In this document: in pieces, positions 23,482-35,938 of the stretch
How positions within the stretch are numbered: position 1 is the stretch's first letter
Layout of the letters: every line of letters begins with the position of its first letter
DNA from: Bryobacterales bacterium
GTDB taxonomy: Bacteria > Acidobacteriota > Terriglobia > Bryobacterales > Bryobacteraceae
Direction of reading: 5' to 3'
Assembly: GCA_019261985.1 (NCBI GenBank)
Contig: JAFAQY010000120.1
Coordinates: 1-38,534, forward strand
DNA length: 38,534 nucleotides
Position numbers and translations under genes: made by a program
Notes under the pieces: model-generated
Told to the model about the DNA's origin: nothing
Database searches by the model: none
The model's input: the letters and a program-made list of their open reading frames with translations, nothing else

Positions 23482-25596
23482 CTACCCGCCTTCTGCTTCC
23501 AGCGTGACCGCTCCATCGGCATCGATGAGTTCCGCCGTGACCTCGCCGGCCGGCTTGCGCTTAAACCGTAGGCCGACCGTAGCCGTAGCGACGCGAACGC
23601 AATGCCATTCAAGCGTGTGCAAACGATCGGGCAACGCCGGCCGGTTGATGCGTAATTTGCGATTGAAAGCATCCGATTCGAGTCCGAGCAAATGCGTCAA
23701 AAGATACGGAATAGAGCCCGACGCCCAAGCTTGGGGATGGCAAGCGACGGGGTAACGAACGGGCTGGGCATACTCATCCGTCGAGAAACCGCCGAACACT
23801 TCCGGCAACCGGTTGTGCGCGAAATCCTGAGAGGCTTCGACCAGACCTTCAAATATGCGCAGCGCATCCGTATTAAACCCATGGCGCTTGAAACCGGTTG
23901 CGATCAGCGCATTATCATGCGGCCAAACTGTTCCGAGATGATAGCCGATCGGGTTGTAGCGCTTTTCCTTGCTCGAAAGCGTCCGGATTCCCCATCCGTT
24001 GAACATATCGGGAGTCATCAAAGTGTGCACCGCCTTCTCAACCCGGCTTTCGTCGACGATTCCGCTCCAAATCGCCTGGCCCGGATTCGAGCTGACGACC
24101 GCCGCCGGCCGGCAATCGCGGTCTAATGCGAGCGCGTAATGGCCAGCGGACGCAATCCAAAAATCCTGATTAAATCGCTTCTTCAGATCTTGCGCTTGCG
24201 CGCGAAGCTGCTCTGCCATTTGCGTCTCGCCTGCGCGCGCATATATGTCCGCGAGGAGCAGCTTGGCTTTAAAAACATAGCCCTGAACTTCGGGCAGCGC
24301 GATCGGCGGCTTGGCGAGGGATCCATCCTTGTTGACGATTGCGTCCCCTGAGTCCTTCCAACCCTGGTTGCCGAGGCCTTGGCTGGCTTTTGTTTCATAG
24401 CAAAGATAATCGGCATGGCGCGCGCAATTTCCATCGATCCATGCAAGAGCGCGCTCTACGTTGGAGCGCAATTCCGTGAACAGGCGCAGGTCGCCGGTCC
24501 ACGCGGTGTATTCACCAACTAGAAGCAAGAACAGCGGAGTGGAATCTACGGACCCATAGTAGGGGGTTTGCGGAATTTCGTTCAGGTTGGCGAGTTCGCC
24601 TCGCCGCAGTTCATGAAGGATCTTTCCGGGCTCCGCGTCGCGGTGGGGATCCACCGTCGCCGCCTGATAGTTGGCTAAGAGGCGAAGCGTGCTGGCCGCG
24701 ATACCCGGATCGAAGGCGAGTGTCTGAAGCGACGCAATGATGCTGTCGCGGCCGAATAAAGCTCCATACCACGGCAGGCCCGCCGCAAAGTAGTGCAGCC
24801 CGTCCAATTCTCCGGACAGCATTTCCAGGTCCGCCATCGATCTCATAAAGGCACGGTCCAACAACTCCCAATCGCTCTCGATGTGTACGCGCTCTTTGCG
24901 GCGCGAAGAGCGGGACTGGTTGGGTTGCGGTTTTCCGGCCTGCTTCTGTTCGAGGACTCTAACCGTGAGCGCGATCGTCCGCGACTCGGAAGCTGGAATG
25001 TGGAGATCGAACTCCGCGCCTTTCTCCGTGGTTTTAGAAGGCGCCTCCTGGAAGCAGATTTCCAACCGCCGTTCGACTTCATCCGCGCCGTCGTAGCAAA
25101 GCACCAGCTTGTTCTGTATCCAATGCGGCCTGCATACGCGGCCTATTTGTTTGGGCCGAAGGCCACGAATCTCGAAGACATCCTCGAATTGCGAGTCGAA
25201 CGAAAAGACGATCGGAAGCGAATGAGGCTGCACGTCATAGTTATGGATTGTGAAGACATCGTTAAGCGTGAGATTCCGTCCGTCTAAGGACCGCTTTAAC
25301 GCACACCCGATCTTCTGCGCGTCGAGGCGAGCGCCGCCGGGCAAGGTGAGCTCTTCGTTCGTGAGTTCGAACTCCGCCGCGGAACAGGACACCGAGGAAA
25401 ACAGCAATGAATTCGGCTCGGTTTTTGCAAACGAGAGGCTGTACTTGTCCAGATACCGGCAGTCGTGATAATAGAGGCCGAACCCATCCTGGCTGCCCGC
25501 TGGGACGCTACCATCGCGCTCGGAGATGAGGAAAATGTCTTGATCCTTGATCACTACCGCGTGCGCGATATTGCGAGGCTGCTGATCCTGGGCCAT
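23482..25596 (-). CDS. Amylo-alpha-1,6-glucosidase-type glycoside hydrolase
   Basis: A 704-residue protein: an N-terminal beta-rich domain (about 1-230) typical of bacterial glycogen-debranching-enzyme N-termini (FLISERDGSVPAGSQDGFGLYYHDCRYL is characteristic), followed by an (alpha/alpha)6-barrel hydrolase domain. Barrel landmarks are LPWYGALFGRDSI, YYGSVDSTPLFL, GNQGWKDSGDAI, HLGTVWPHDNALIA and LPEVFGG; the acidic residues in WKDSGD and PEVF are the candidate acid/base pair. The family is annotated as releasing glucose from alpha-1,6 branches, but many bacterial members have other alpha-glucoside substrates. No glycogen synthase or phosphorylase is nearby. It is the last gene of the 31182-23482 operon: start 10 bp after the SDR stop, with GGCGAGGC as a modest ribosome-binding site. 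Whether it joins the same pathway is an inference from linkage. Confidence 0.85.
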   Translation of the reverse strand: MAQDQQPRNIAHAVVIKDQDIFLISERDGSVPAGSQDGFGLYYHDCRYLDKYSLSFAKTEPNSLLFSSVSCSAAEFELTNEELTLPGGARLDAQKIGCALKRSLDGRNLTLNDVFTIHNYDVQPHSLPIVFSFDSQFEDVFEIRGLRPKQIGRVCRPHWIQNKLVLCYDGADEVERRLEICFQEAPSKTTEKGAEFDLHIPASESRTIALTVRVLEQKQAGKPQPNQSRSSRRKERVHIESDWELLDRAFMRSMADLEMLSGELDGLHYFAAGLPWYGALFGRDSIIASLQTLAFDPGIAASTLRLLANYQAATVDPHRDAEPGKILHELRRGELANLNEIPQTPYYGSVDSTPLFLLLVGEYTAWTGDLRLFTELRSNVERALAWIDGNCARHADYLCYETKASQGLGNQGWKDSGDAIVNKDGSLAKPPIALPEVQGYVFKAKLLLADIYARAGETQMAEQLRAQAQDLKKRFNQDFWIASAGHYALALDRDCRPAAVVSSNPGQAIWSGIVDESRVEKAVHTLMTPDMFNGWGIRTLSSKEKRYNPIGYHLGTVWPHDNALIATGFKRHGFNTDALRIFEGLVEASQDFAHNRLPEVFGGFSTDEYAQPVRYPVACHPQAWASGSIPYLLTHLLGLESDAFNRKLRINRPALPDRLHTLEWHCVRVATATVGLRFKRKPAGEVTAELIDADGAVTLEAEGG

Positions 25597-25606
25597 GCCT
25601 CGCCGG

Positions 25607-26587
25607 TCAGCGCTTCGCGAGCAGGAACAATCCCAGGGCGGCTAAGCCGGCGGCCGCGCCGATTGCCCCGCGGTGTTCTTGCAGCCAGGTCTCTTCGCTG
25701 GCGTCGGAGGCACGATCGGAGAATATTCCGCGCGCGCCCCAATCGCCCTCCACGGGTTCGAATAGATTGTTCGGACGGTTCCACGATACGGGTTGGTCCG
25801 TCTGCTGGGCTTCGTATCCCGTTTCCCCCAGATAACGATCGGCGTATCCGGGGTCGAATTTCTCGGCATAGATGGCTTTTGCGGTCGGAAGTCCGACATA
25901 GAGCTCGCGGCGGTGGTGATGCGCGGCCCAGTAGATGGCGCGCGCCGCGACCTCCGGCTCATAGATCGGCGGCACCGGCTGGGGATGGTTCGGCAGTTTG
26001 CTTTTGCACCAGGAAAACTGCGGCGTGTTCATGGCGGGCAAGTGAACCACTGTGATACGGATATTGCTCTTGTCGTGCACTAACTCGGAGCGAATTGTAT
26101 CGGTAAAGCCGACAATGGCATGCTTAGCGCCGCAATAGGGCGACTGCAGCGGAATAGAGCGGTACGCAAGCGCCGATCCGACTTGTACGATAGTTCCGCG
26201 ATCGCGGGTGCGCATCCGCCGCAGCGCGGCCATAGTTCCCCAAACGAAGCCCAGATATGTGACCTCGGTCGCGCGCTTATATTCTTCGGGCGTTATCTCA
26301 GTAAACGGCGCGAAAACCGTGGTCATGGCATTATTGATCCAGATGTCGATTGGACCCAGTTCGCGCTCCACCTGTGTTGCGGCTTTCTCCACGCGATCCG
26401 GATCGGCTACATCGGTAGGAATCGCCAGCGCTTTTCCGCCCGCCTGTTCCACCTCGCGTTTTGCGGCCTCAAGGCGCTCGACGCCGCGCGCTAGCAAGCC
26501 GATGCGAGCCTTGCGTTTGGCGAATTCATGAACAACGGCGCGGCCGACTCCGGCCGATGCTCCGGTGACAACAACGGTTTCTTGCAT
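25607..26587 (-). CDS. Short-chain dehydrogenase with a C-terminal membrane helix
   Basis: An NAD(P)-dependent oxidoreductase of the classical SDR family. The cofactor loop is TGASAGVG (8-15), the structural NNA is at 85-87, and the catalytic residues are Ser138, Tyr151 and Lys155 (YCGAK). After the ~250-residue core come an unusual extension (QPVSWNRPNNLFEPVEGDWGARGIF) and a final hydrophobic helix ending FLLAKR, so the enzyme is probably tail-anchored in the cytoplasmic membrane. Arg in LLAR after the second strand suggests NADP preference. Ribosome-binding site GGAGGA. It starts 4 bp after the ASRT-family gene, inside the five-gene operon. The substrate is unknown; a sugar or sugar-derived alcohol fits the neighbours. 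Confidence 0.88.
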   Translation of the reverse strand: MQETVVVTGASAGVGRAVVHEFAKRKARIGLLARGVERLEAAKREVEQAGGKALAIPTDVADPDRVEKAATQVERELGPIDIWINNAMTTVFAPFTEITPEEYKRATEVTYLGFVWGTMAALRRMRTRDRGTIVQVGSALAYRSIPLQSPYCGAKHAIVGFTDTIRSELVHDKSNIRITVVHLPAMNTPQFSWCKSKLPNHPQPVPPIYEPEVAARAIYWAAHHHRRELYVGLPTAKAIYAEKFDPGYADRYLGETGYEAQQTDQPVSWNRPNNLFEPVEGDWGARGIFSDRASDASEETWLQEHRGAIGAAAGLAALGLFLLAKR

Positions 26588-26591
26588 AAAT

Positions 26592-26969
26592 TCATTCCTC
26601 CCCGGGAAACGCGATCGTGCTTAGCAGCGCGTTTTCCGCTTGCCTCGAATCGAGTCCGGTGTGTTGGACGATAACCGGCACATCCGAGCGGATCACGCTT
26701 GAATAGGGCGTATCCGGAGGGATCTTCTCGGGATCGTCGAAATTATTAAATCTCAGGTGGCGGGTACGGCGCGCCCCGACCATGAAGCGGTACGGGCCGG
26801 CGGGCTCGCGGTTCTCGGAGTACACCGTAATTGCAACTCGCGCATCCTGATCGCTTGGGTTCAGAATACAGACCGCCTCATGGCTGATCATCTGGGGCGC
26901 TGGTCCGTGGCTCCAAGCGGGAATGTAGCCTTCCGCGATCGCCCACACCTTCCGTCCGAGCAGACTCAT
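26592..26969 (-). CDS. Anabaena sensory rhodopsin transducer (ASRT) family protein
   Basis: A 125-residue soluble beta-sandwich protein of the family named after the transducer of Anabaena sensory rhodopsin. Family landmarks: GRKVWAIAEGYIPAWSHGP at the N-terminus, SHEAVCILNPSDQDARV, GPYRFMVGARRTRHLRFNNFDDPE, SSVIRSDVPVIVQHTGLDSRQAENALLSTIAFP. There is no opsin gene here, which is usual for the family outside cyanobacteria; homologs have been proposed to bind small molecules, possibly sugars. Start ATG overlaps the stop of the enolase-type gene (ATGA), with GGAGA as ribosome-binding site. It could sense or carry an intermediate of the surrounding pathway; no DNA-binding domain is present, so direct transcriptional control is not evident. 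Confidence 0.9.
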   Translation of the reverse strand: MSLLGRKVWAIAEGYIPAWSHGPAPQMISHEAVCILNPSDQDARVAITVYSENREPAGPYRFMVGARRTRHLRFNNFDDPEKIPPDTPYSSVIRSDVPVIVQHTGLDSRQAENALLSTIAFPGEE

Positions 26970-28111
26970 GCACGGTCTCCGCGATACACCAGATATTTTT
27001 CGGCGTCGGCCTTTTTCAGATTCAGGCCCAGCCCGGGCGCCGAAAGATCCGGCTTGAGCATGCCGTCTTGCGCGGCCAGCGCGCCGTCCAGGAGCATACG
27101 CTCAATGCGGACGTGATCGTGGAAATATTCGACATTGCGGGCGCGCGGCGCCGCGCAACAAAGGTGCCCGTGCAGGGAAGGAGAAGTGTGTGCAGATAAG
27201 GGGATGCCGAAACTATCCGCTTCTTCGGCGGCTTTCAAGAACCCGGTGACGCCGCCGCAGCGCGTCGCGTCAGCCTGAATCACGTCGACGGCTTCCGCTC
27301 TCAGCATCCGGCGGAAGTAAAGCTGCGTGTAGCCGTATTCGCCCGCGGCGATTTCCATGCAAGAGGGCGCTCGACGGCGGATGAAGCGCAGCCCCGGTAA
27401 ATCGTCCGAGCTTACCGGCTCCTCAAACCAACTAACCCCGAAGTTTACGAATTTCTCTGCCATGTGGAGCGCTTGCCTGGCGGAATATGCCCCGTTGGCG
27501 TCCGCGTACAAATCAGCGCTGCCGATTGCCTGCCGCGCCGCGCGGACGCGATCTACATCGCATTCCGGGTGCGAGCCGATTTTCATCTTTACAGCGATAA
27601 TGCCGTCGCGAATCCATCCTGCTAATTGGCGTTGGAGCTGTTGGTTCGTATACGAAGTAAATCCGCCGCTACCGTACACCGGTATGGATGCGCGCAACGC
27701 GCCCAATAACTTCAGCAGCGACATACCGAGCAACTTCGCTTTCAGGTCCCAAAGCGCCACGTCGACAGCCGATACCGCCATGGAAGCGATGCCTTCCCGT
27801 CCCAGGTTGCGGACGGAGCGGCGCATCGCGAGAAACGCCGACTGCGGCGAGAACGCATCCAAGCCCGAAAGGACATTCGCCAGGTGGTCGTGGATCAGAG
27901 TTGCCGTCGCCGTGTCCGCGTACGTGTATCCGAACCCGGTCTGGTCCATCGCGTCCGCTTCAACGGTGACCAGAGTCGTGCTGGTCCATTCGTACGTGCC
28001 GTCGGCTTCCGGGGCATCCGTGGGAATCTTGTAGGCGCAGACAGACAACCGGGCAATCCGCGTGCCAGCCGCGTGAGCCGCCGTGTCTTTTAGCTCCTCG
28101 ATCGTCTCCAC
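26966..28111 (-). CDS. Mandelate racemase-type enolase superfamily enzyme
   Basis: A 381-residue enzyme of the mandelate racemase/sugar-acid dehydratase subgroup. It abstracts the proton next to a carboxylate and then racemises or dehydrates. Seen: K-x-K (VKMKIG, K175 and K177), metal ligands D204 (YADANGAY), E230 (FEEPV) and E258 (AAGEYGY), and the His-Asp dyad D281 and H308 (SAHTSP), which fits the MR subgroup rather than muconate cycloisomerases or enolase proper. The N-terminal capping domain includes EWTSTTLVTVEAD. The gene starts with GTG within the 3' end of the FAD/Fe-S gene (22-bp overlap) and overlaps the ASRT gene at its end. Sugar acids are the usual substrates of this subgroup; the exact one is not deducible. 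Confidence 0.9.
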   Translation of the reverse strand: METIEELKDTAAHAAGTRIARLSVCAYKIPTDAPEADGTYEWTSTTLVTVEADAMDQTGFGYTYADTATATLIHDHLANVLSGLDAFSPQSAFLAMRRSVRNLGREGIASMAVSAVDVALWDLKAKLLGMSLLKLLGALRASIPVYGSGGFTSYTNQQLQRQLAGWIRDGIIAVKMKIGSHPECDVDRVRAARQAIGSADLYADANGAYSARQALHMAEKFVNFGVSWFEEPVSSDDLPGLRFIRRRAPSCMEIAAGEYGYTQLYFRRMLRAEAVDVIQADATRCGGVTGFLKAAEEADSFGIPLSAHTSPSLHGHLCCAAPRARNVEYFHDHVRIERMLLDGALAAQDGMLKPDLSAPGLGLNLKKADAEKYLVYRGDRA

Positions 28112-31100
28112 AGGACGTACGCTCCTCCTAGCGCAAGACCGGCTCCGAATATGACGGCCGGCGGCACAGCCGGCGTTCTTGGCTCATAGGTAAGAATGTT
28201 CGCCATGGGTACGATGGCGCGCTCGGGTTGCGCTTCATGCTTCAGCGCCAACTGCAGCACCTGCGCGAAATGCAATGCGCGCCGGTTCGTGGTCTGGTGG
28301 ATTTGTTCGCGGCAGCTGAAGCCGTCGGTGATCAACAAAGTATCCGGTTTTGCGTCCCGAACCTCCGGCAGCAGCTCTCGCTCGCCGCACGCGAGCGATA
28401 CCTCGTAATGATCTTTTTCGTAGCCGAACGCGCCCGCCATGCCGCAGCACCCGGAATCGAGCACCCGCACATCTATGCCTGTTTTCTTGAGGAGATCCAC
28501 TTCGGCTTGCCAGTGCAACACGGCTTTGTGATGGCAGTGGCCGTGAACGATGGCTTTGGATTCCAGCCGGGGCGGAGAATAGCCGTCCGATTTACTCAAA
28601 AACTCACTCAGGAAAAACGATTGATTATGCAGCCGCCAGGCATCCTCGTTTTGGGGAAGCAGGTTTGTCATTTCATCGCAGAAAACGGAGATGCAGCTTG
28701 GCTCCAGCCCCACGATGGGAGTTCCAGCTTCAATCTCCGGCCGCAGTGTTTCGAGGATATTCAGCAGCCAGCGCTTGGCGGTGGGGAGCATGCCGTAGTC
28801 GTACAGCGGCCGTCCGCAGCACATATCCTGATGTGGAACCAAAACCTGATAGCCGCCGTGTTCGAGGACCTCCACCGCGGCTTTGGCTACGCCAGGAGTG
28901 AAGTGGTTGTTAAAGGTATCCGGCCAAAGTACGACCCGCGGGCCGGACGTATTCCTCCGCGGGCGAGCGCGGAACCACTGCTTGAACGTCTGCGGAGCAA
29001 ACGGAGGGATGGACCGACTCTGGCTATAGCCCGCGGCCCACTTCGTAAGCGACCGTAAGCCGGGCGTTTGCGTGAAGAAATTCGCCGTCGCCGGCATATT
29101 CTCCGCGATCTGGCACCATCGGTGAATCAGCCCCGAAGCATACGTATTTCGAGGGCGAATGCGGCCGTCGTAATAATGCGAAAGGAATTCGGCCTTGTAG
29201 GTGGCCATGTCCACGTTTACCGGGCAGTCGCTTTTGCAGCCTTTGCACGACAGGCAAAGATCCAAGGCTTCCCGGACGTGCTCGCTGCGCCAGCCGCGAT
29301 CGATCGGATCGCCGTGCATCATCTCGAACAGCAACCGCGCGCGGCCCCGAGTGGAGTGCATTTCTTCCCGCGTGGCCCTGTAGCTGGGGCACATGGTCTT
29401 GCTTTCTTCGCGCCGGCACTCGCCGATGCCGACACACCGCTGCGAGGCGACAGCGAAGCTGTGGCGATCTTGCGGGTACGCGAAATGCGTGTGGACTTCC
29501 GGAGGGTTATAGCTGGTTCCTAACCGCAGGTTCTCGTCGATCCGATACGGGTCTACTACTTTGCCCGGGTTCATTTTCCATTCGGGATCCCAAAGCGACT
29601 TAAATTGGCGAAAGGCCTCCACCAGCTCGCTCCCGAACATCTTTGTGAGAAATTCGGCGCGAGCCTGTCCGTCGCCGTGCTCGCCCGACAATGAGCCGCC
29701 AAAGGATAGGACCAGATCGGTAGCGGCCTCCATGAAGCCACGAAATTGTTTCAGACCTTGCGCGGTCCTCAGCTCGAAGGGAACGCGGCAGTGAATGCAG
29801 CCTTGTCCGAAATGTCCGTACAGCGACGGTTTGTTCAGTCCGTGATCTTCATACAGCTTTCGCAGCTTGCGCAGGTACGGTCCCACCAATTGAGGCGGGA
29901 CTGCGGAATCCTCCCATCCAGGCCACGTATCTTGCTCGCCGGGAACCATGGCAGTGGCGCCCAAGCCGGACTCACGGACCTCCCATAACATCTTTTCCTG
30001 GGCCGGGTCGTCGTAGAGCTTCATGGAAGGCGCGTTCGGCGCATTCTTCAGTTCGTCCATCAGCGCTCGCGCCTTTTGCTCAGCGTCGTCGCGGGACTCG
30101 CCGCCGAATTCGAGCATTAGCCAGCCATTGCCTTCCGGAAGCAGAGTGAGATCCTGAACATGCAGCCCCTTTTTGTGCATGTATTCCAGAAGGCGGTCGT
30201 CGATCCCTTCGCACGCCAGTGGCTTATGCGCTACTACCTCCGAAATATGATCGCCCGCCGCAAAGACGTCGGGGTAGCCGAGGACAAGAAGAACGCGAAC
30301 CTTAGGGTTGTCGACGAGTTTCGTTTTGATTTCGAGGAAGGTGACGCAGGTGCCTTCCGTGCCCACCAGCGCTCTGGCGACATTGAATCCATTTTCGGGA
30401 AGCAGTTCATCCAGGTTGTAACCGGACACGCGCCGCGGGATTTTGGGATAGCGCTGACGAATCAGATCGCCATAGCGGTCGCGGATCTCTCGAAGTCCGC
30501 GGTAGATATCGCCGGCACGCCCGCGTTCGCGGCAAAATGCGTCCAGTTCCTGGTCGCTGGCTTTCCCCACGCGCATCTGAATTCCGTCATACGTCAGAAT
30601 CGAAAACTCTTCGATGTTTTCCGAAACACGGCCCCAAGCCTGCGCGTGCATGCCGCAAGAATTATTGCCGCTCATCCCGCCCAGCGTGCAGTGATTATGA
30701 GTGGCGGGATCCGGACCGAACGTCAGGCCGTGGTTGTTCGCCGCCTTGCGCAGGTCATCCAGCACACAGCCGGGTTCCACTCGCGCAATCTTGCGATCGG
30801 GGTCCAGCTCAACGATTTTGTGCAGATATTTCGTCCAGTCGATGCAAATGGCGACATTACAGCATTGGCCCGCGAGGCTGGTCCCCCCTCCGCGATTTAG
30901 TAGCGGAGCGCCGAACTTGCGTGCGATTGACACTGTAGCGACGACGTCGTCCAGATCGCGGGGGATGACCACGCCGATCGGCACCTGACGATAGTTCGAT
31001 GCATCGGTTGCGTACAATGCGCGGCTGCCGGCGTCGAAACGCACTTCGCCGCGCAGTTTGTTCCTTAACTCGGCGGCAAGCGCCTGTGAATCGCCCTCCC

Positions 31101-31182
31101 ACTGAACAGGCTTCGACGGGGTACGCTGCAAGGCATCATGTTGATTTTGCAGTGCAATGAGTTCGTCCGTTAGGGCTGCCAT
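28090..31182 (-). CDS. Large FAD-linked oxidase fused to a 4Fe-4S/CCG-domain module, with C-terminal membrane helix
   Basis: A 1030-residue fusion like YdiJ or GlcD+GlpC/GlcF. The N-terminal half is a PCMH-type FAD oxidase for D-2-hydroxy acids: VIPRDLDDVVATV, LLNRGGGTSLAGQC, ATHNHCTLGGMSGNNSCGMHA, GTEGTC, GSLSGEHGDGQAR and LKxWDPEWKMNPGKVV. The Fe-S module follows, with RCVGIGEC...MCPSYR and the canonical CLSCKGCKSDCPV, then two CCG domains (QDMCCGRPLYDYG and LDSGCCGMAGAFG). Unlike YdiJ, it ends with a hydrophobic helix (AVIFGAGLALGGAYVLW) and a basic tail. Electrons would pass from substrate via FAD and Fe-S to a membrane carrier. It is the first gene of the operon, starting 77 bp after the nucleotidyltransferase stop. 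I see no strong ribosome-binding site before the ATG. Lactate or glycolate are only the family's usual substrates. Confidence 0.9.
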   Translation of the reverse strand: MAALTDELIALQNQHDALQRTPSKPVQWEGDSQALAAELRNKLRGEVRFDAGSRALYATDASNYRQVPIGVVIPRDLDDVVATVSIARKFGAPLLNRGGGTSLAGQCCNVAICIDWTKYLHKIVELDPDRKIARVEPGCVLDDLRKAANNHGLTFGPDPATHNHCTLGGMSGNNSCGMHAQAWGRVSENIEEFSILTYDGIQMRVGKASDQELDAFCRERGRAGDIYRGLREIRDRYGDLIRQRYPKIPRRVSGYNLDELLPENGFNVARALVGTEGTCVTFLEIKTKLVDNPKVRVLLVLGYPDVFAAGDHISEVVAHKPLACEGIDDRLLEYMHKKGLHVQDLTLLPEGNGWLMLEFGGESRDDAEQKARALMDELKNAPNAPSMKLYDDPAQEKMLWEVRESGLGATAMVPGEQDTWPGWEDSAVPPQLVGPYLRKLRKLYEDHGLNKPSLYGHFGQGCIHCRVPFELRTAQGLKQFRGFMEAATDLVLSFGGSLSGEHGDGQARAEFLTKMFGSELVEAFRQFKSLWDPEWKMNPGKVVDPYRIDENLRLGTSYNPPEVHTHFAYPQDRHSFAVASQRCVGIGECRREESKTMCPSYRATREEMHSTRGRARLLFEMMHGDPIDRGWRSEHVREALDLCLSCKGCKSDCPVNVDMATYKAEFLSHYYDGRIRPRNTYASGLIHRWCQIAENMPATANFFTQTPGLRSLTKWAAGYSQSRSIPPFAPQTFKQWFRARPRRNTSGPRVVLWPDTFNNHFTPGVAKAAVEVLEHGGYQVLVPHQDMCCGRPLYDYGMLPTAKRWLLNILETLRPEIEAGTPIVGLEPSCISVFCDEMTNLLPQNEDAWRLHNQSFFLSEFLSKSDGYSPPRLESKAIVHGHCHHKAVLHWQAEVDLLKKTGIDVRVLDSGCCGMAGAFGYEKDHYEVSLACGERELLPEVRDAKPDTLLITDGFSCREQIHQTTNRRALHFAQVLQLALKHEAQPERAIVPMANILTYEPRTPAVPPAVIFGAGLALGGAYVLWRRSRS

Positions 31183-31258: not shown

Positions 31259-31735
31259 TCAGGAGAGTTCTTCTTCGATCGCCTCGAGCTCCGCTAAGGC
31301 TTCGAGATCCCTCGGGCGGCCTGCTGCACGCTTTGCGCGAATAAGCTGAGCCACGCTGAGGCAGAGGCATTGCGTGCCGAATAAATTCAATTCAACGGCT
31401 CCGCTTCGGAGATCGCTGTAGCTCCCTCCTCCTGGTATTTCGCCTAGAAGATCGATGTCCCCGAGGGATGTGACCAATGTAAAATTCAAACCGCGCCGCA
31501 AGGTGGTCAAGTCCCAATGGAACGGCAGACCCGGCGGCACGCCGCGCAAATAAGGATTGTGCTCGGATAGCGCCGCAACCAGCCGGACAAGGTTGCCGGA
31601 CGAGCGGTCATAAACAATATCCAGATCTTCAGTGAGGCGAGCCGAACCGTGTGCGATACCGGCCGCGCCCCCGACTACAATGAACGCTACTTCATGGCTT
31701 GTGAGGGCCGCGAGCAACGCGTCGAAATCCGTCAT
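31259..31735 (-). CDS. Nucleotidyltransferase-fold protein (AbiEii/MenT-like)
   Basis: A 158-residue pol-beta-type nucleotidyltransferase: VVGGAAGIAHGSARLTEDLDIVYD holds the GG and the D-x-D catalytic pair of the fold; DIDLLGEIPGG carries a third candidate acidic residue. Its C-terminal helices (CLSVAQLIRAKRAAGRPRDLEALAELEAI) match the group used as toxins in type IV-like AbiE systems and in MenT-type TA pairs. The start overlaps by 4 bp (ATGA) the stop of a 65-residue gene, the usual layout of antitoxin then toxin. It could alternatively be a housekeeping nucleotidyltransferase. Confidence 0.7.
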   Translation of the reverse strand: MTDFDALLAALTSHEVAFIVVGGAAGIAHGSARLTEDLDIVYDRSSGNLVRLVAALSEHNPYLRGVPPGLPFHWDLTTLRRGLNFTLVTSLGDIDLLGEIPGGGSYSDLRSGAVELNLFGTQCLCLSVAQLIRAKRAAGRPRDLEALAELEAIEEELS

Positions 31736-31963: not shown

Positions 31964-34186
31964 TTACAGCAGCTTGTCTAACGTGATCGGCAAATCCCGC
32001 ACTCGTTTTCCCGTCGCGTGAAAAACGGCATTCGCTACCGCCGCGGCGGAGCCGGTGATCCCGATTTCGCCGATGCCTTTTGCGCCGATCGGGTCCACAT
32101 GGTGGTCGGCTTCGTCCACCCAAATCACGTCGATATCGCCGATATCGGCGTTGACGGGCACGTGGTATTCCGCGAGGTTGTTGTTGACGATGCGGCCGAG
32201 GCGCTCGTCGTAAACGGCGTGCTCGTACAAGGCGAAGCTCACGCCCCACACCATCCCGCCCATAAAATTGCTCCGCGCCGTTTTGGCATTTATGATGCGG
32301 CCCGCGCCGAACGCGCCCACCATTCTCGACACGAAGACCTGTCCAAGATCCGCATCCACGCGCACTTCTGCGAACTGTGCGCCGAAAGACATCGGTGAGA
32401 ATTCTTCTTTCTCCTGGCCGGGCGCTGCGTTCACTATGGCTTCGATATAAGGCTCGCCAAGTCCCGCTGCGAAATGCTGAATGGTTTCCATCTGTCCCGG
32501 GCGGTCGGAACGAGACAAGCGTCCGTTTTCAAATGCAATCTGCGCCGGCTTCGCTCCGTAAAGTAAGGAATTGCGATCGACAACTGCACGCTGGATGATT
32601 GTATCGCGCAGCGCTCGTGCGGCCAGGTACACGGCTGAACCGGTGCTCGCCGTCGTCATAGACCCGCCCGAGACCGGCGTCGGCGGGAATTGCGTATCGC
32701 CCAACCGGAAGATTACACGAGATGGCTCGACGCCGATGCCATCGGCCGCGATTTGGGTCATGGTGGTGTAAGTGCCACCCCCGATTTCTTGCGTGCCGGC
32801 CTCGACCTGTATAGAGCCGTCGCGATTTAGGCGCGCGCGAGCCGAAGCCGGCGACCGGCGTGCCGGATACATTGCGGTACCCAGGCCCCAGCCGATCAGC
32901 GTATGACCATCGCGCATGGACCCCGGCTCCGGCGATCTTTTCGCCCATCCAAAACGCTCCGCGCCCATTCGGTAGCACTCACGCAATGATTTGGCGGACC
33001 ACGGCTTTTGGCCGTCTTCGTCCTGCTCGGCATAATTCTTCAGCCGCAGTGCTAGAGGGTCCATCGTGAGCGCATATGCCAATTCATCCATCGCCACCTC
33101 CAGCGCGAATGTCCCGGGAGCTTCGCCGGGCGCGCGCATATACGACGGAGTGCCGATATCCGAACGAACCACACGTTGGGTGGTGGAATTGTTTGGAACG
33201 GAATACAGCTTGCGCGTAGGAGTGCTGGCCGGCTCGACAAAGTCGTCGAAAGAGGACGTATGGGTGACGACGTCGTTCTTTAAGGCTGTCAATGTGCCGT
33301 CCGGCTTGGCGCCTATCGCAATCGACTGGCGCGTTTCGCTGCGGCACCCGATGGGCCCAAACATCTGCGGCCGTGCCAGCACCAGCTTCACGGGCCGTCG
33401 CACCTCGCGCGCGGCCATCGCGCAAAGCAGCACATGCGACCAGGTTGGTCCTTTGCTGCCGAAGCCGCCGCCGACATAGGGCGAAAGCACGCGGACGTTT
33501 TCGACCGCCAAGCCGAGGAGACCGGCAACGCGTTTGCGGGCGCCGAAAATTCCCTGCGTAGCGTCATAAAGAGTAAGCCCGTCGGGACCGTCCCAAACCG
33601 CGACGGTTGCGTGCGGCTCCATGGGGTTGTGGACTTGGAACGGCGTTGTGTATACCTGTTCGAGGCGCGTTGAGGCCTGCGACATGCCGGCCTGCACATC
33701 GCCGCGCGAGCTTCGTCCGGGATCTCCCGCGCCGCTCAGCCTTTCGGGAATGAAGGCCCCGGCCAAACTCGCATCGACGCTCACAGAAGGCGTTTCTGGG
33801 CCATAGCGGACCTGCGCCAAACGCGCGCCCTCCTGCGCGGCCTCAAGCGTTTCGGCGACCACCACGGCGACGGGCTGTCCCGCATAAAGCACACGATCGT
33901 TTTGCAGAAGCTGCAGCCGGCGGTCCGCGGCCGAATCGGGGGAGATGTCATCGGGACTTTTTGCCAGCTTCAGCTTGCTTTCATGAGTCAATACGGCGAT
34001 TATTCCAGGCGCACGCCGGGCCGCGGCTGAATCGATGGACGCAACCCGTCCCTTGGCGATGGTGCTGGTCACCATCACGGCGTAAGTCATTCCGGGAAGA
34101 TTGTTCTCTGCCGAATAAACAGCCCCGCCCGTTACCTTTGCTCGTCCATCGACTCGGTCGAGCGGTTCGCCTATGGCGCTTGGCAT
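31964..34186 (-). CDS. PaoC-like molybdenum-binding aldehyde oxidoreductase subunit
   Basis: The catalytic, molybdenum-cofactor subunit of a xanthine dehydrogenase-family enzyme close to E. coli PaoC (YagR), which oxidises aromatic aldehydes in the periplasm. 740 residues versus 732. Seen: IGEPLDRVDGRAKVTGGAVYSAEN at the N-terminus, the Mo-cofactor loops GGGFGSKG and TQEIGGGTYT, and the catalytic glutamate E707 in GAKGIGEIG. The start ATG at 34186 has an excellent ribosome-binding site (GGAGGGA) that overlaps the stop of the FAD subunit gene 12 bp upstream; longer N-terminal readings would enter that gene and are not supported. No PaoD/XdhC maturation gene is in the window. Confidence 0.9.
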   Translation of the reverse strand: MPSAIGEPLDRVDGRAKVTGGAVYSAENNLPGMTYAVMVTSTIAKGRVASIDSAAARRAPGIIAVLTHESKLKLAKSPDDISPDSAADRRLQLLQNDRVLYAGQPVAVVVAETLEAAQEGARLAQVRYGPETPSVSVDASLAGAFIPERLSGAGDPGRSSRGDVQAGMSQASTRLEQVYTTPFQVHNPMEPHATVAVWDGPDGLTLYDATQGIFGARKRVAGLLGLAVENVRVLSPYVGGGFGSKGPTWSHVLLCAMAAREVRRPVKLVLARPQMFGPIGCRSETRQSIAIGAKPDGTLTALKNDVVTHTSSFDDFVEPASTPTRKLYSVPNNSTTQRVVRSDIGTPSYMRAPGEAPGTFALEVAMDELAYALTMDPLALRLKNYAEQDEDGQKPWSAKSLRECYRMGAERFGWAKRSPEPGSMRDGHTLIGWGLGTAMYPARRSPASARARLNRDGSIQVEAGTQEIGGGTYTTMTQIAADGIGVEPSRVIFRLGDTQFPPTPVSGGSMTTASTGSAVYLAARALRDTIIQRAVVDRNSLLYGAKPAQIAFENGRLSRSDRPGQMETIQHFAAGLGEPYIEAIVNAAPGQEKEEFSPMSFGAQFAEVRVDADLGQVFVSRMVGAFGAGRIINAKTARSNFMGGMVWGVSFALYEHAVYDERLGRIVNNNLAEYHVPVNADIGDIDVIWVDEADHHVDPIGAKGIGEIGITGSAAAVANAVFHATGKRVRDLPITLDKLL

Positions 34187-34197
34187 AGATTCCCTCC

Positions 34198-35187
34198 TCA
34201 GGCGCGCGTGGAAGCTGCTTCCAATGCTCGTGCGATTGAGCGGCGCACGAGTTCGACTTTGAAACGGTTGTGCGCATACGGTTTCGCGCCCTTTAGCAGC
34301 GCCTCCGCAACGTCGCGGAAAGCGCCATCGCCGGGAGTCTGCCCGATCAAAACGCGTTCCGCATCCGGGACGCGCCACGGCATGTGCGCCACTCCGCCCA
34401 GGGCAAGTTGCGCGCGGCGAATCGAACCGTTCGAATCGAGGCCAACTACGGCGGCCACGGAAATCAACGCAAAGGCATAAGAGTTCCGGTCACGCACTTT
34501 TAAGTAATGACCTCCGGTGGCCCAGTCGATCGGTGGAAGATCCACCGCGGTGATTAATTCTCCCGGCCGGAGATTCGTATCGATGTTGGGAGTATCGCCG
34601 GGCAAACGGAAGAAATCTCCGGCCAGCCTCGATCGCGGGCCTTGTGGTCCGAGCACTTGGATCCTCGCATCCAGCGCCATCAGCGCCACGGCCATATCGC
34701 CGGGATTCGTCGCGATGCATTGATCGCTTGCGCCGAGGATCGCGTGCATGCGGTTGTACCCATCGATTGCGTCGCATCCGGAACCCGGCAAGCGTTTATT
34801 GCAATGCGCGTACGTGGGGTCGTAGAAGTAGGAGCAGCGCGTGCGCTGCATGAGGTTGCCGCCGATGGTGGCCATATTGCGCAATTGCGGGGAAGCGCCC
34901 GCCAGAATGGCCTGCGATAGGACTGGATAACGGTCGCGCACCAGCGGATGCTCAGCGACCGTGCTATTGCGCACCATAGCTCCGATTCGGATGCCTCCGG
35001 CGTGTTCTTCAATCGTCGCCAGCGGCAGGCGTGTGATGTCGATCAGTGTTGAGGGCTGTTCGACGCCCATTTTCATAAGGTCGATCAGATTCGTTCCGCC
35101 ACCGAGAAATTTAGCGCCGCTCGATGAGGAAAATGTTGCGATGGCTTCGTCCGTAGTGGAAGGCCGGGCGTACGCGAAGGCTTTCAT
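34198..35187 (-). CDS. PaoB-like FAD/[4Fe-4S] subunit
   Basis: FAD-binding middle subunit (329 residues) of the aldehyde oxidoreductase. The FAD loops are FLGGGTNLIDLMKMG and ATIGGNLMQRT. A cysteine-rich insertion (CSYFYDPTYAHCNKRLPGSGC, then CIATNPGDMA) matches the place where E. coli PaoB holds an extra [4Fe-4S] cluster and is absent from most xanthine dehydrogenase FAD subunits. The C-terminal CO-dehydrogenase flavoprotein domain is normal (WRVPDAERVLIGQ). The ATG at 35187 overlaps the stop of the small-subunit gene (ATGA). Confidence 0.9.
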   Translation of the reverse strand: MKAFAYARPSTTDEAIATFSSSSGAKFLGGGTNLIDLMKMGVEQPSTLIDITRLPLATIEEHAGGIRIGAMVRNSTVAEHPLVRDRYPVLSQAILAGASPQLRNMATIGGNLMQRTRCSYFYDPTYAHCNKRLPGSGCDAIDGYNRMHAILGASDQCIATNPGDMAVALMALDARIQVLGPQGPRSRLAGDFFRLPGDTPNIDTNLRPGELITAVDLPPIDWATGGHYLKVRDRNSYAFALISVAAVVGLDSNGSIRRAQLALGGVAHMPWRVPDAERVLIGQTPGDGAFRDVAEALLKGAKPYAHNRFKVELVRRSIARALEAASTRA

Positions 35188-35783
35188 CCGGCAACCCTGC
35201 CTCGCACGGCTTTGATCGCCGCGACGATGTTCGGATAAGCGCCGCAACGGCAGATGTTGCCGGACATGCGCTCTCGGATTTCCGCGTCGTCGAGAGGCTT
35301 GGCCCGGCCACGGACCTCATTCAGAAGGCCGGCGGCGGAACAGATCTGCCCCGGTGTGCAGTATCCGCACTGAAATCCATCGTGCTCGATAAAAGCCGCT
35401 TGAAGAGGATGCAGGTCGCCGTTGCGCGCAAGTCCCTCGATGGTCGTGATGAAATCGCCATTGTGCGTAACAGCGAGGCTCAGGCAGGAATTAATCCGAG
35501 TCCCGCCGGAGAGTACAGTGCAGGCCCCGCACTGGCCATGATCGCAGCCCTTCTTGGCGCCGGTAAGATGAAGGCGTTCGCGCAGCAAATCGAGGAGCGT
35601 GATGCGCGGATCGAGCGTTAACGCGTACTCCCGGCCATTAACGGTAATCGCGCAATCGACGATCTCAGAAGCGGACGGAACGGTTTGTGCTTCGGCGAGC
35701 GGAACCGTTGCGGCGATTCCAGCGGAAAGGCTTGCGACGTTCATAAAGTCCCGGCGGGAAAGATCATCACGTGAGAATTCCAC
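35184..35783 (-). CDS. PaoA-like [2Fe-2S] subunit with Tat signal
   Basis: Small electron-transfer subunit (199 residues). The Tat signal SRRDFMNVASLSAGIAATVP is followed by the plant-type [2Fe-2S] motif GCDHGQCGACTV...C and the second [2Fe-2S] domain FQCGYCTPGQICSA...GNICRCGAY. The whole enzyme is thus exported folded through Tat, as in E. coli PaoABC. I placed the start at the GTG 35783, giving VEFSRDDLSRRDF; an upstream extension would run through the repeat and has no support. No clear ribosome-binding site precedes that GTG. The start codon and first codons lie inside an intergenic-repeat copy (35758-35938). Confidence 0.87.
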   Translation of the reverse strand: MEFSRDDLSRRDFMNVASLSAGIAATVPLAEAQTVPSASEIVDCAITVNGREYALTLDPRITLLDLLRERLHLTGAKKGCDHGQCGACTVLSGGTRINSCLSLAVTHNGDFITTIEGLARNGDLHPLQAAFIEHDGFQCGYCTPGQICSAAGLLNEVRGRAKPLDDAEIRERMSGNICRCGAYPNIVAAIKAVRGRVAG

Positions 35784-35938
35784 AATCGGGAGATGCGGGT
35801 TGCAGGCAGGGCGTAACAGAGAGTAGTTGTGGGGCCGGATGCCATCCGGCACGCGGTTGCCAACCGCGCTGGGCGGGGCTGCTAGGAAGGTCGGCAAGCG
35901 GCTTGGCAAGCCGCTGCAGGTTGGCAACCTGCCCTACA
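35758..35938. repeat. Direct repeat copy 1 with four mini-hairpins
   Basis: About 181 bp nearly identical in layout to 37474-37653, same orientation. It contains four hairpins: GCCGGAT-GCC-ATCCGGC (35834-35850), CGCGGTT-GCC-AACCGCG (35852-35868), GCGGCTT-GGC-AAGCCGC (35898-35914) and GCAGGTT-GGC-AACCTGC (35916-35932). Each is built on a TTGGCAA/TTGCCAA or ATGCCAT centre. Its left end overlaps the start of the PaoA-like gene. Together with the other copy it flanks the amidohydrolase gene. Confidence 0.85.

What the first reader, a model, noticed from the sequence alone, without database searches (positions are those of the whole stretch)
23482..31182. Five-gene operon linking an orphan ASRT protein to a FAD/Fe-S oxidase, an enolase-superfamily enzyme, an SDR and an amylo-alpha-1,6-glucosidase
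Overlaps and gaps are 22 bp overlap, 4 bp overlap, 4 bp gap and 10 bp gap, so the genes form one transcription unit. ASRT-family proteins without rhodopsin are largely uncharacterised. Combined with an MR-type sugar-acid enzyme, a D-2-hydroxyacid-type oxidase and a glucosidase, a pathway that frees a glycoside, oxidises and dehydrates it, and binds an intermediate with ASRT is plausible. This is the best candidate for an undescribed system in the window.
Basis: partly seen in the sequence, partly recalled or inferred. Interest (0 to 1): 0.75.

Follow-up and report, generated by a model that had tools for sequence, protein, structure and literature searches.

The report
Sugar-oxidation operon carrying rhodopsin-transducer homolog
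An acidobacterium carries a five-gene sugar-breakdown operon that looks like one version of a widespread, mix-and-match oxidation gene set, and it includes a relative of a protein known for passing on light signals, which here more likely senses a sugar product.

Summary
In detail: five minus-strand genes (oxidase, MR-type enolase, ASRT, SDR, debranching-type glucosidase) sit at the stated coordinates with the stated overlaps and gaps. The reading is partly supported. The genes are a variant of a recurrent module seen in Acidobacteriota, Pseudomonadota, Deinococcota and Actinomycetota, also on plasmids. In 33 enolase loci, a PoxB-like TPP enzyme lies within 10 kb in 27; either the window's FAD/Fe-S oxidase (13) or GMC + gluconate-dehydrogenase-subunit-3 (17) is present, never both, and 3 have neither. 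A tail-anchored SDR and an exo-glucosidase often accompany it. ASRT is an accessory (11 of 33, but 2 of 22 found through the enolase); still, among 396 acidobacterial genomes all four with a close ASRT also carry the enolase. The window operon lacks the TPP gene; a homolog below its family cut-off lies on another contig. The ASRT-dehydratase-oxidase link was printed in 2009 (PMC2739507), so it is not undescribed. New, as far as I searched, are the exchangeable oxidase cassettes and a cyanobacterial rhodopsin-ASRT-luciferase-like-glucosidase cluster. Best explanation: respiratory, non-phosphorylative oxidation of glucose from alpha-glucan or trehalose, with ASRT as metabolite sensor. All substrates are unproven.

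The parts
28090..31182 (-). FAD/Fe-S 2-hydroxyacid-dehydrogenase-like oxidase (OXI), 1030 aa; one of two alternative oxidase cassettes of the module
28093..28170 (-). C-terminal hydrophobic tail of OXI (possible membrane anchor; present in 6 of 11 module OXI compared, window included)
26966..28111 (-). MR-subgroup enolase-superfamily enzyme (ENO), 381 aa, best solved relative 3cyj (390 bits); predicted sugar-acid dehydratase
27581..27589 (-). KxK motif of ENO (K175, K177), each conserved in 27 of 28 sequences
26592..26969 (-). ASRT-family protein (PF07100), 125 aa, 65% identical to Anabaena sensory rhodopsin transducer over the aligned stretch; predicted metabolite sensor
26859..26885 (-). SHExxCxxN ligand-pocket signature of ASRT (SHEAVCILN, residues 29-37)
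   Evidence: signature defined in PMC2739507
25607..26587 (-). Short-chain dehydrogenase of the PRK07109 subfamily, 326 aa
25610..25669 (-). C-terminal hydrophobic tail of the SDR, present in 17 of 17 complete SDRs compared
23482..25596 (-). Glycogen-debranching-type amylo-alpha-1,6-glucosidase (GDE_N_bis + GDE_C/MGH1-like domains), 704 aa; best solved relative 7vma (328 bits)

Best explanation
The operon is a variant of a horizontally spread, modular, respiratory sugar-oxidation system. Step 1 (inferred): the glucosidase, GDE here and trehalase-like GH15, glucodextranase or TreS-like elsewhere, releases glucose or short glucosides from intracellular alpha-glucan or trehalose. Step 2 (inferred): the membrane-tailed SDR and the FAD/Fe-S oxidase, replaced elsewhere by GMC + gluconate-2-dehydrogenase-subunit-3, oxidise the sugar and then its aldonic acid, feeding electrons to the respiratory chain. 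Step 3 (catalytic residues shown, substrate inferred): the enolase-superfamily enzyme dehydrates a sugar acid to a 2-keto-3-deoxy acid. Step 4 (presence shown, reaction inferred): a PoxB-like TPP enzyme, adjacent in most of the loci and possibly supplied from another contig in this genome, oxidatively decarboxylates the 2-keto acid. ASRT (inferred) binds one of the sugars or sugar acids in its SHExxCxxN pocket and reports its level, by contacting a module enzyme or DNA. It is an add-on sensor and not a catalytic part.
For: Recurrence: in 33 ENO loci incl. the window, TPP within 10 kb in 27, OXI in 13, GMC in 17, both in 0, neither in 3, SDR in 16, GH15 or GDE in 12 by tblastn, ASRT in 11. Four of the window's five genes cluster at 54-63% identity in two Halomonadaceae and in Microvirga. 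A S. sojae plasmid pairs OXI with GDE (48% identity). Exchange inside the window's own genus: G016 has ENO then OXI (OXI cut by the contig end), G019 has TPP, GH15 glucodextranase, SDR, G2DH3, GMC and ENO. ENO keeps its metal and His-Asp residues in 28 of 28 sequences and each KxK lysine in 27 of 28. The nearest solved relative of one module TPP enzyme (G102's) is pyruvate dehydrogenase [cytochrome]. The window genome has a TPP homolog at 611 bits on contig C3. ASRT and ENO co-occur: 4 of 4 close-ASRT genomes among 396 carry ENO against 12 of 396 overall, hypergeometric p 5e-7.
Against: No substrate is shown for any enzyme; no curated substrate model fits ENO or OXI. Of 22 ENO loci found through ENO, 2 have ASRT. 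OXI has a wide life outside the module: 85 of 396 genomes, with module genes nearby in 3 of 18 fetched loci, and module OXI are not one clade. The window's TPP homolog is below its family cut-off (611 of 724 bits) and no other module gene was found on the fetched stretch, so it may serve another purpose. GDE was found in 2 of the 33 loci. In Anabaena the ASRT activity in the paper I opened is DNA binding, not sugar binding (PMC8660804 passages).
Confidence: 0.4

Rival explanations
1. ASRT acts here as a DNA-binding transcription regulator of the operon, as reported for Anabaena ASRT, and any small-molecule binding only modulates that.
For: The residues named as DNA contacts in Anabaena (R, Q, N; passage of PMC8660804), which I place by motif (RQAEN) at window residues 109, 110 and 113, are broadly kept: R in 32 of 35, Q in 30 of 35, N in 21 of 35 ASRT sequences. 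The same passages report promoter binding, DNA looping and reporter induction.
Against: The same residues are kept in loci without rhodopsin and may serve the tetramer or pocket. Reported affinity is about 10 uM with weak sequence dependence. Residues constant in 35 of 35 (W9, N37, R68, R73, Q102, D107) are not the named contacts.
Confidence: 0.25
2. The module is a stress or detoxification kit: SDR and oxidase remove reactive aldehydes or 2-hydroxyacids, and the glucan and trehalose enzymes travel with it because both belong to desiccation and osmotic-stress islands.
For: Neighbours in some loci include ferritin-like, PRC-barrel, catalase, universal-stress, DUF4142 and DUF892 genes. A Pao/XDH-type aldehyde oxidoreductase operon adjoins the window's operon. 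In Anabaena asr-asrt is in a table of genes changed in a FurB transcriptome, and that paper ties FurB to desiccation-tolerance and trehalose genes (PMC12282138 passages).
Against: It does not explain the tight TPP-ENO pair (within 110 bp in 25 of 33 loci) or the one-or-the-other oxidase cassettes. XDH genes are near in 3 of 33.
Confidence: 0.2
3. One reading: glucosidase, oxidase and enolase act in series on one glycoside and ASRT binds an intermediate, specific to this organism.
For: The five genes are tightly packed and that exact set was in none of the other 32 ENO loci.
Against: Each part is exchangeable or optional in other loci, and the most constant partner (TPP) is missing from the operon.
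Confidence: 0.1
4. Chance juxtaposition of horizontally acquired genes with no joint function.
For: ASRT and ENO are patchy: ASRT in 0 of 60 relatives and ENO in 3 of 60.
Against: Recurrence in distant lineages and the ASRT-ENO co-occurrence.
Confidence: 0.03

Closest known systems
ASRT-like ASRAH-domain neighbourhoods of De Souza, Iyer and Aravind 2009 (PMC2739507)
   Same: [quoted passage not shown] sugar-sensor proposal.
   Different: Their main text (all three parts read; figures and additional file not seen) has no occurrence of GMC, short-chain, debranching, gluconate, trehal- or glucosidase, and reports the rhodopsin linkage only in Nostoc.
Anabaena sensory rhodopsin transducer (PDB 2ii7)
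   Same: 65% identity over the aligned stretch, same pocket signature and same RQAEN motif.
   Different: No rhodopsin found next to the window gene; partners are sugar enzymes.
3cyj, mandelate racemase/muconate lactonizing enzyme-like protein (organism recalled: Rubrobacter xylanophilus)
   Same: Near full-length match at 390 bits; the DANGAY, EEPVSS, GEY, QAD and SAH stretches are shared.
   Different: The entry's name gives no specific function; no substrate can be transferred.
D-2-hydroxyglutarate dehydrogenase YdiJ
   Same: FAD-oxidase and Fe-S regions in one long chain.
   Different: 484.9 bits against a 1350-bit equivalog cut-off.
Pyruvate dehydrogenase [cytochrome], 3ey9 (PoxB of E. 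coli, recalled)
   Same: Nearest solved relative of the module's TPP enzyme from G102.
   Different: The module enzyme usually sits beside a sugar-acid dehydratase (27 of 33 ENO loci), so its substrate is probably not, or not only, pyruvate (inference).

Membership tests
ASRT-like family (PF07100) | Score over Pfam gathering cut-off | tested here: met
   172.8 bits vs 25
ASRT-like family (PF07100) | SHE-s-h-C-h-h-N signature | tested here: met
   SHEAVCILN, residues 29-37
ASRT-like family (PF07100) | Standalone single-domain protein of about 125 aa | tested here: met
   125 aa, one domain over residues 5-122
ASRT-like family (PF07100) | Tetramer that binds a small molecule | not testable with these tools
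   needs protein
Sensory-rhodopsin transducer in function | Co-encoded with a rhodopsin | tested here: inconclusive
   no rhodopsin among the 20 window ORFs scanned, no tblastn match of two cyanobacterial rhodopsins to the window, and no PF01036 hit genome-wide, but the genome search rang in no control
MR subgroup of the enolase superfamily (dehydratases) | KxK, D/E/E metal ligands, His-Asp dyad | tested here: met
   K175, K177, D204, E230, E258, D281, H308; residue roles recalled
L-talarate/galactarate dehydratase and other named sugar-acid dehydratases | Curated NCBIfam cut-off | tested here: not met
   best 177 of 500 bits; none of the 14 matching models passes
YdiJ D-2-hydroxyglutarate dehydrogenase | Curated NCBIfam equivalog cut-off | tested here: not met
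   484.9 of 1350 bits
PRK07109 SDR subfamily | Curated NCBIfam subfamily cut-off | tested here: met
   486 over 264 bits
TPP-ENO-oxidase module (defined here) | PoxB-like TPP gene within 10 kb of ENO | tested here: not met
   absent beside the window's ENO; a 611-bit homolog, below the 724-bit cut-off, lies on contig C3
TPP-ENO-oxidase module (defined here) | Exactly one oxidase cassette beside ENO | tested here: met
   OXI present, GMC not found

The most novel reading that the evidence does not exclude
The module is an unrecognised respiratory route that shortens glucose-derived sugar acids by one carbon without phosphorylation: aldonate, then a 2-keto-3-deoxy acid by ENO, then quinone-linked oxidative decarboxylation by the PoxB-like enzyme. 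Two unrelated oxidase cassettes do the same aldonate-oxidising job. ASRT is its intracellular sugar-acid gauge. In cyanobacteria such as Spirirestis the same gauge is wired to a rhodopsin in one operon with a storage-glucan glucosidase, so that light and sugar status jointly set glucan mobilisation.
Probability: 0.2. Interest if true: 0.8.

Novelty: new variant of a known kind. Interest (0 to 1): 0.5.

Why it matters
What ASRT senses is unsettled: it was named a light-signal transducer and then proposed to be a sugar sensor (PMC2739507). A defined chemical module that repeatedly carries ASRT, plus a cyanobacterial locus joining rhodopsin, ASRT and a glucosidase, narrows the ligand list to a handful of sugars and sugar acids and makes the question directly testable. 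The exchangeable oxidase cassettes also constrain the substrate of an enolase family that has a crystal structure but no assigned function.

Tried and rejected
YdiJ identity for the oxidase: rejected on the curated cut-off. A named substrate for the enolase: none of the 14 matching curated models reaches its cut-off. OXI as a marker of the module: rejected; in 15 of 18 fetched acidobacterial OXI loci (one of them only 3.8 kb long) no TPP, ENO, GMC, SDR, GH15, GDE or ASRT match was found, though two have a CoxA-type match. OXI tree: module OXI are not one clade; 6 label changes, at least 3 forced by well-supported branches, shuffled mean 9.7, with 5-7 of 500 shuffles as low, so the label is somewhat clustered. 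ENO tree by cassette type: labels cluster (4 changes, shuffled mean 8.2, 0-1 of 500 shuffles as low) but only 8 of 25 inner branches are well supported and the window's ENO has no well-supported neighbour. Foreign origin from base composition: no shift across the operon, G+C 0.58-0.60. Promoter and terminator scans at shuffle level; no tRNA and no Rfam hit in the window. Structure model of the glucosidase from a 3-row alignment: mean pLDDT 55.7, too poor, so no fold search was made. PDB search with the Deinococcus GH15: no match at E 0.001. Paper searches with combined terms and the one-term search 'sensory rhodopsin transducer' with 18 papers: no listing described the module beyond PMC2739507, but I opened only that paper (full main text) and PMC8660804, PMC3198991 and PMC12282138 (passages); the rest were seen as listings.
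Full report
WHAT IS THERE. The window carries five minus-strand genes as described: OXI 28090-31182, ENO 26966-28111, ASRT 26592-26969, SDR 25607-26587, GDE 23482-25596, with a 22-bp overlap, a 4-bp overlap and gaps of 4 and 10 bp. Pfam and NCBIfam support each name. The ASRT is close to the original: 65% identical to the Anabaena protein over the aligned stretch (PDB 2ii7), with the pocket signature SHEAVCILN. The nearest solved relative of ENO is 3cyj (390 bits); that of GDE is 7vma, deposited as a putative archaeal-type debranching enzyme (328 bits). The window's genome most likely belongs to Acidobacteriota: G308, from its class, has a 188,167-bp contig with ENO at 25574-26638, and the Granulicella tundricola plasmid NC_015058.1 has the same length with ENO at 25577-26650.

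IT IS PATCHY IN THE GENUS AND PHYLUM. ASRT is in 0 of 60 relatives, 22 of them in the same genus. At E 1e-60, ENO is in 3 of 60 relatives, SDR in 3 of 60, and GDE, at 37-40% identity, in 7 of 60. In 396 phylum genomes, window included, PF07100 was found in 10, over its cut-off in 7, and at more than 170 bits in G000, G102, G127 and G251 only. ENO was found in 12 of the 396, including all four of those; hypergeometric p is 4.9e-7, or 9.3e-5 if all ten weak and strong ASRT genomes are counted. The four lie in four different families. ENO and ASRT are adjacent in G000, separated only by TPP in G102 and G251, and about 85 kb apart on one contig in G127.

THE MODULE. I tabulated 33 ENO loci: the window, 8 found through ASRT, 22 through ENO (two of these, L041 and L043, also came up in the ASRT survey; L115 was fetched as an OXI locus), and 2 through OXI. 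These are not all that exist. Of 36 plasmid records with ENO I opened 9 through the ENO search (one, L058, duplicates L073 and is not counted twice), of 79 with ASRT I opened 8, of 295 with OXI I opened 2. The genome-contig scan used two peptide patterns and returned 19 ASRT loci. Within 10 kb of ENO: TPP in 27 of 33, within 110 bp in 25; OXI in 13; GMC in 17; both in 0; neither in 3 (L015, on a short contig; L071; L143). The six without TPP are the window, L015 and L115 (ENO at a contig end), L142 and L072 (contig ends 1.5 and 2.7 kb beyond ENO), and L023. SDR is in 16 of 33, GH15 or GDE by tblastn in 12 of 33 (annotation or Pfam adds L023 and L141), ASRT in 11 of 33: 8 of 8 found through ASRT, 2 of 22 found through ENO, and the window. 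The exact five-gene set of the window occurs in none of the other 32.

EXCHANGEABLE PARTS. The oxidase step is done by one of two unrelated cassettes, OXI, or an unnamed protein + Gluconate_2-dh3 + GMC oxidoreductase. The swap is seen inside the window's genus: G016 has ENO followed by OXI (62% identity, cut by the contig end), G019 has TPP, peptidase M24, GH15 glucodextranase, SDR, VKOR-like, unnamed protein, G2DH3, GMC and ENO in one direction. The glucosidase is exchangeable too: trehalase-like GH15 (TREH_N + GH15), glucodextranase, GDE (window; S. sojae plasmid at 48% identity) or a TreS-like enzyme near ASRT (S. meliloti, Mesorhizobium). The Deinococcus TPP enzyme passes the PRK08273 model (780 over 724 bits); the S. 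meliloti one does not (570 bits). The nearest solved relative of G102's copy is pyruvate dehydrogenase [cytochrome]. The window's genome has a 611-bit homolog on contig C3, with no other module gene on the fetched stretch.

RESULTS AGAINST A SIMPLE STORY. OXI is common in the phylum (85 of 396 genomes at E 1e-150, 49 places over 1000 bits, window included); of 18 such loci fetched, module genes were nearby in 3 (L106, L107, L115). Module OXI are not one clade. Of the 19 ASRT loci in named genomes, ENO was within the fetched stretch in 4 and any of TPP, ENO, OXI, SDR, GH15, GDE or TreS in 6. So ASRT is an accessory and OXI a recruited enzyme, while TPP-ENO is the core.

CATALYTIC AND BINDING RESIDUES. 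In 28 ENO sequences D204, E230, E258, the D281-H308 pair and E328 are in 28 of 28, and K175 and K177 each in 27 of 28; their roles are recalled from the mandelate racemase subgroup. In 35 ASRT sequences W9, N37, R68, R73, Q102 and D107 are in 35, H30 and E31 in 34, C34 in 32. The DNA-contact residues reported for Anabaena (PMC8660804 passages), placed by motif, are R109 (32 of 35), Q110 (30) and N113 (21). The SDR has a hydrophobic C-terminal tail in 17 of 17 complete copies (an eighteenth, L041, was cut by the fetched edge); OXI has one in 6 of 11 module copies including the window's, and lacks it in L017, L043, L063, L066 and L076.

THE BRIDGE TO RHODOPSIN. A rhodopsin gene directly precedes ASRT in 3 of the 19 ASRT loci, all cyanobacterial MAGs (L002, L003, L009), out of 10 cyanobacterial loci. 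In L009 (Spirirestis rafaelensis) it overlaps ASRT by 4 bp and is followed by a luciferase-like oxidoreductase and a GDE 35% identical to the window's, all on one strand. That luciferase-like protein is 54% identical to the one beside ASRT and the TreS-like gene in S. meliloti. A 2011 paper judged the rhodopsin-ASRT pair a specific feature of Anabaena PCC 7120 (PMC3198991 passages); these loci extend it, and one attaches it to sugar enzymes.

PRIOR ART. PMC2739507 (all three parts of the main text read; [quoted passage not shown] The core association is therefore known. The words GMC, short-chain, debranching, gluconate, trehal- and glucosidase do not occur in its main text. In the listings I saw no other paper on the alternative cassettes or the rhodopsin-glucosidase locus; the library is open-access only and I opened four papers.

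MECHANISM AND VERDICT. The parts fit a respiratory route: glucosidase, sugar and sugar-acid oxidation with electrons to the chain, dehydration by ENO, oxidative decarboxylation by a PoxB-like enzyme, with ASRT as optional metabolite gauge. Shown: gene content, recurrence, mutual exclusion of the two cassettes in this sample, conserved catalytic and pocket residues. Inferred: every substrate, the order of steps, and ASRT's ligand and partner. It is a new variant of a known kind, with an open and now well-framed question.

Noticed in passing
L009:9180-13656 (Spirirestis rafaelensis): Rhodopsin, ASRT, luciferase-like oxidoreductase and debranching-type glucosidase in one direction, the first two overlapping by 4 bp: a locus joining the light-sensing and the sugar context of ASRT.
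   Followed up: partly
L024:9001-11032 and L028:8968-11113: Two ASRT copies flank a sugar-lactone-oxidase-type FAD enzyme both in a haloarchaeal plasmid (Natrononativus) and in a Sinorhizobium meliloti plasmid.
   Followed up: no
L059:10129-11142 and matches in the 17 GMC-type loci and L071: A protein of 337 aa in L059 without any Pfam match has relatives near gluconate-dehydrogenase subunit 3 in all 17 GMC-type loci (only weak, partial matches in the two Deinococcus loci L022 and L023).
   Followed up: no
window 31964-35927: PaoABC/xanthine-dehydrogenase-like three-gene operon next to the module on the same strand; XDH-family genes are also near the module in Komagataeibacter (L068) and Rhizobium sp. 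Q54 (L063), 3 of 33 loci in all.
   Followed up: partly
window 31259-31735: 158-aa ORF between the module and the XDH operon, reading like a small nucleotidyltransferase by eye; no Pfam or NCBIfam match.
   Followed up: no
L022:5478-5876 and L141:5961-6485: A VKOR-like protein lies in the GMC-type cluster of a Deinococcus plasmid (24.2 bits, under the 27.5 cut-off) and of a genome of the window's genus (34.7 bits), which might mean disulfide handling for an exported oxidase.
   Followed up: no
G000:C127:8436-10511: The window's genome holds a second GDE, 38% identical to the operon's, on another contig.
   Followed up: no
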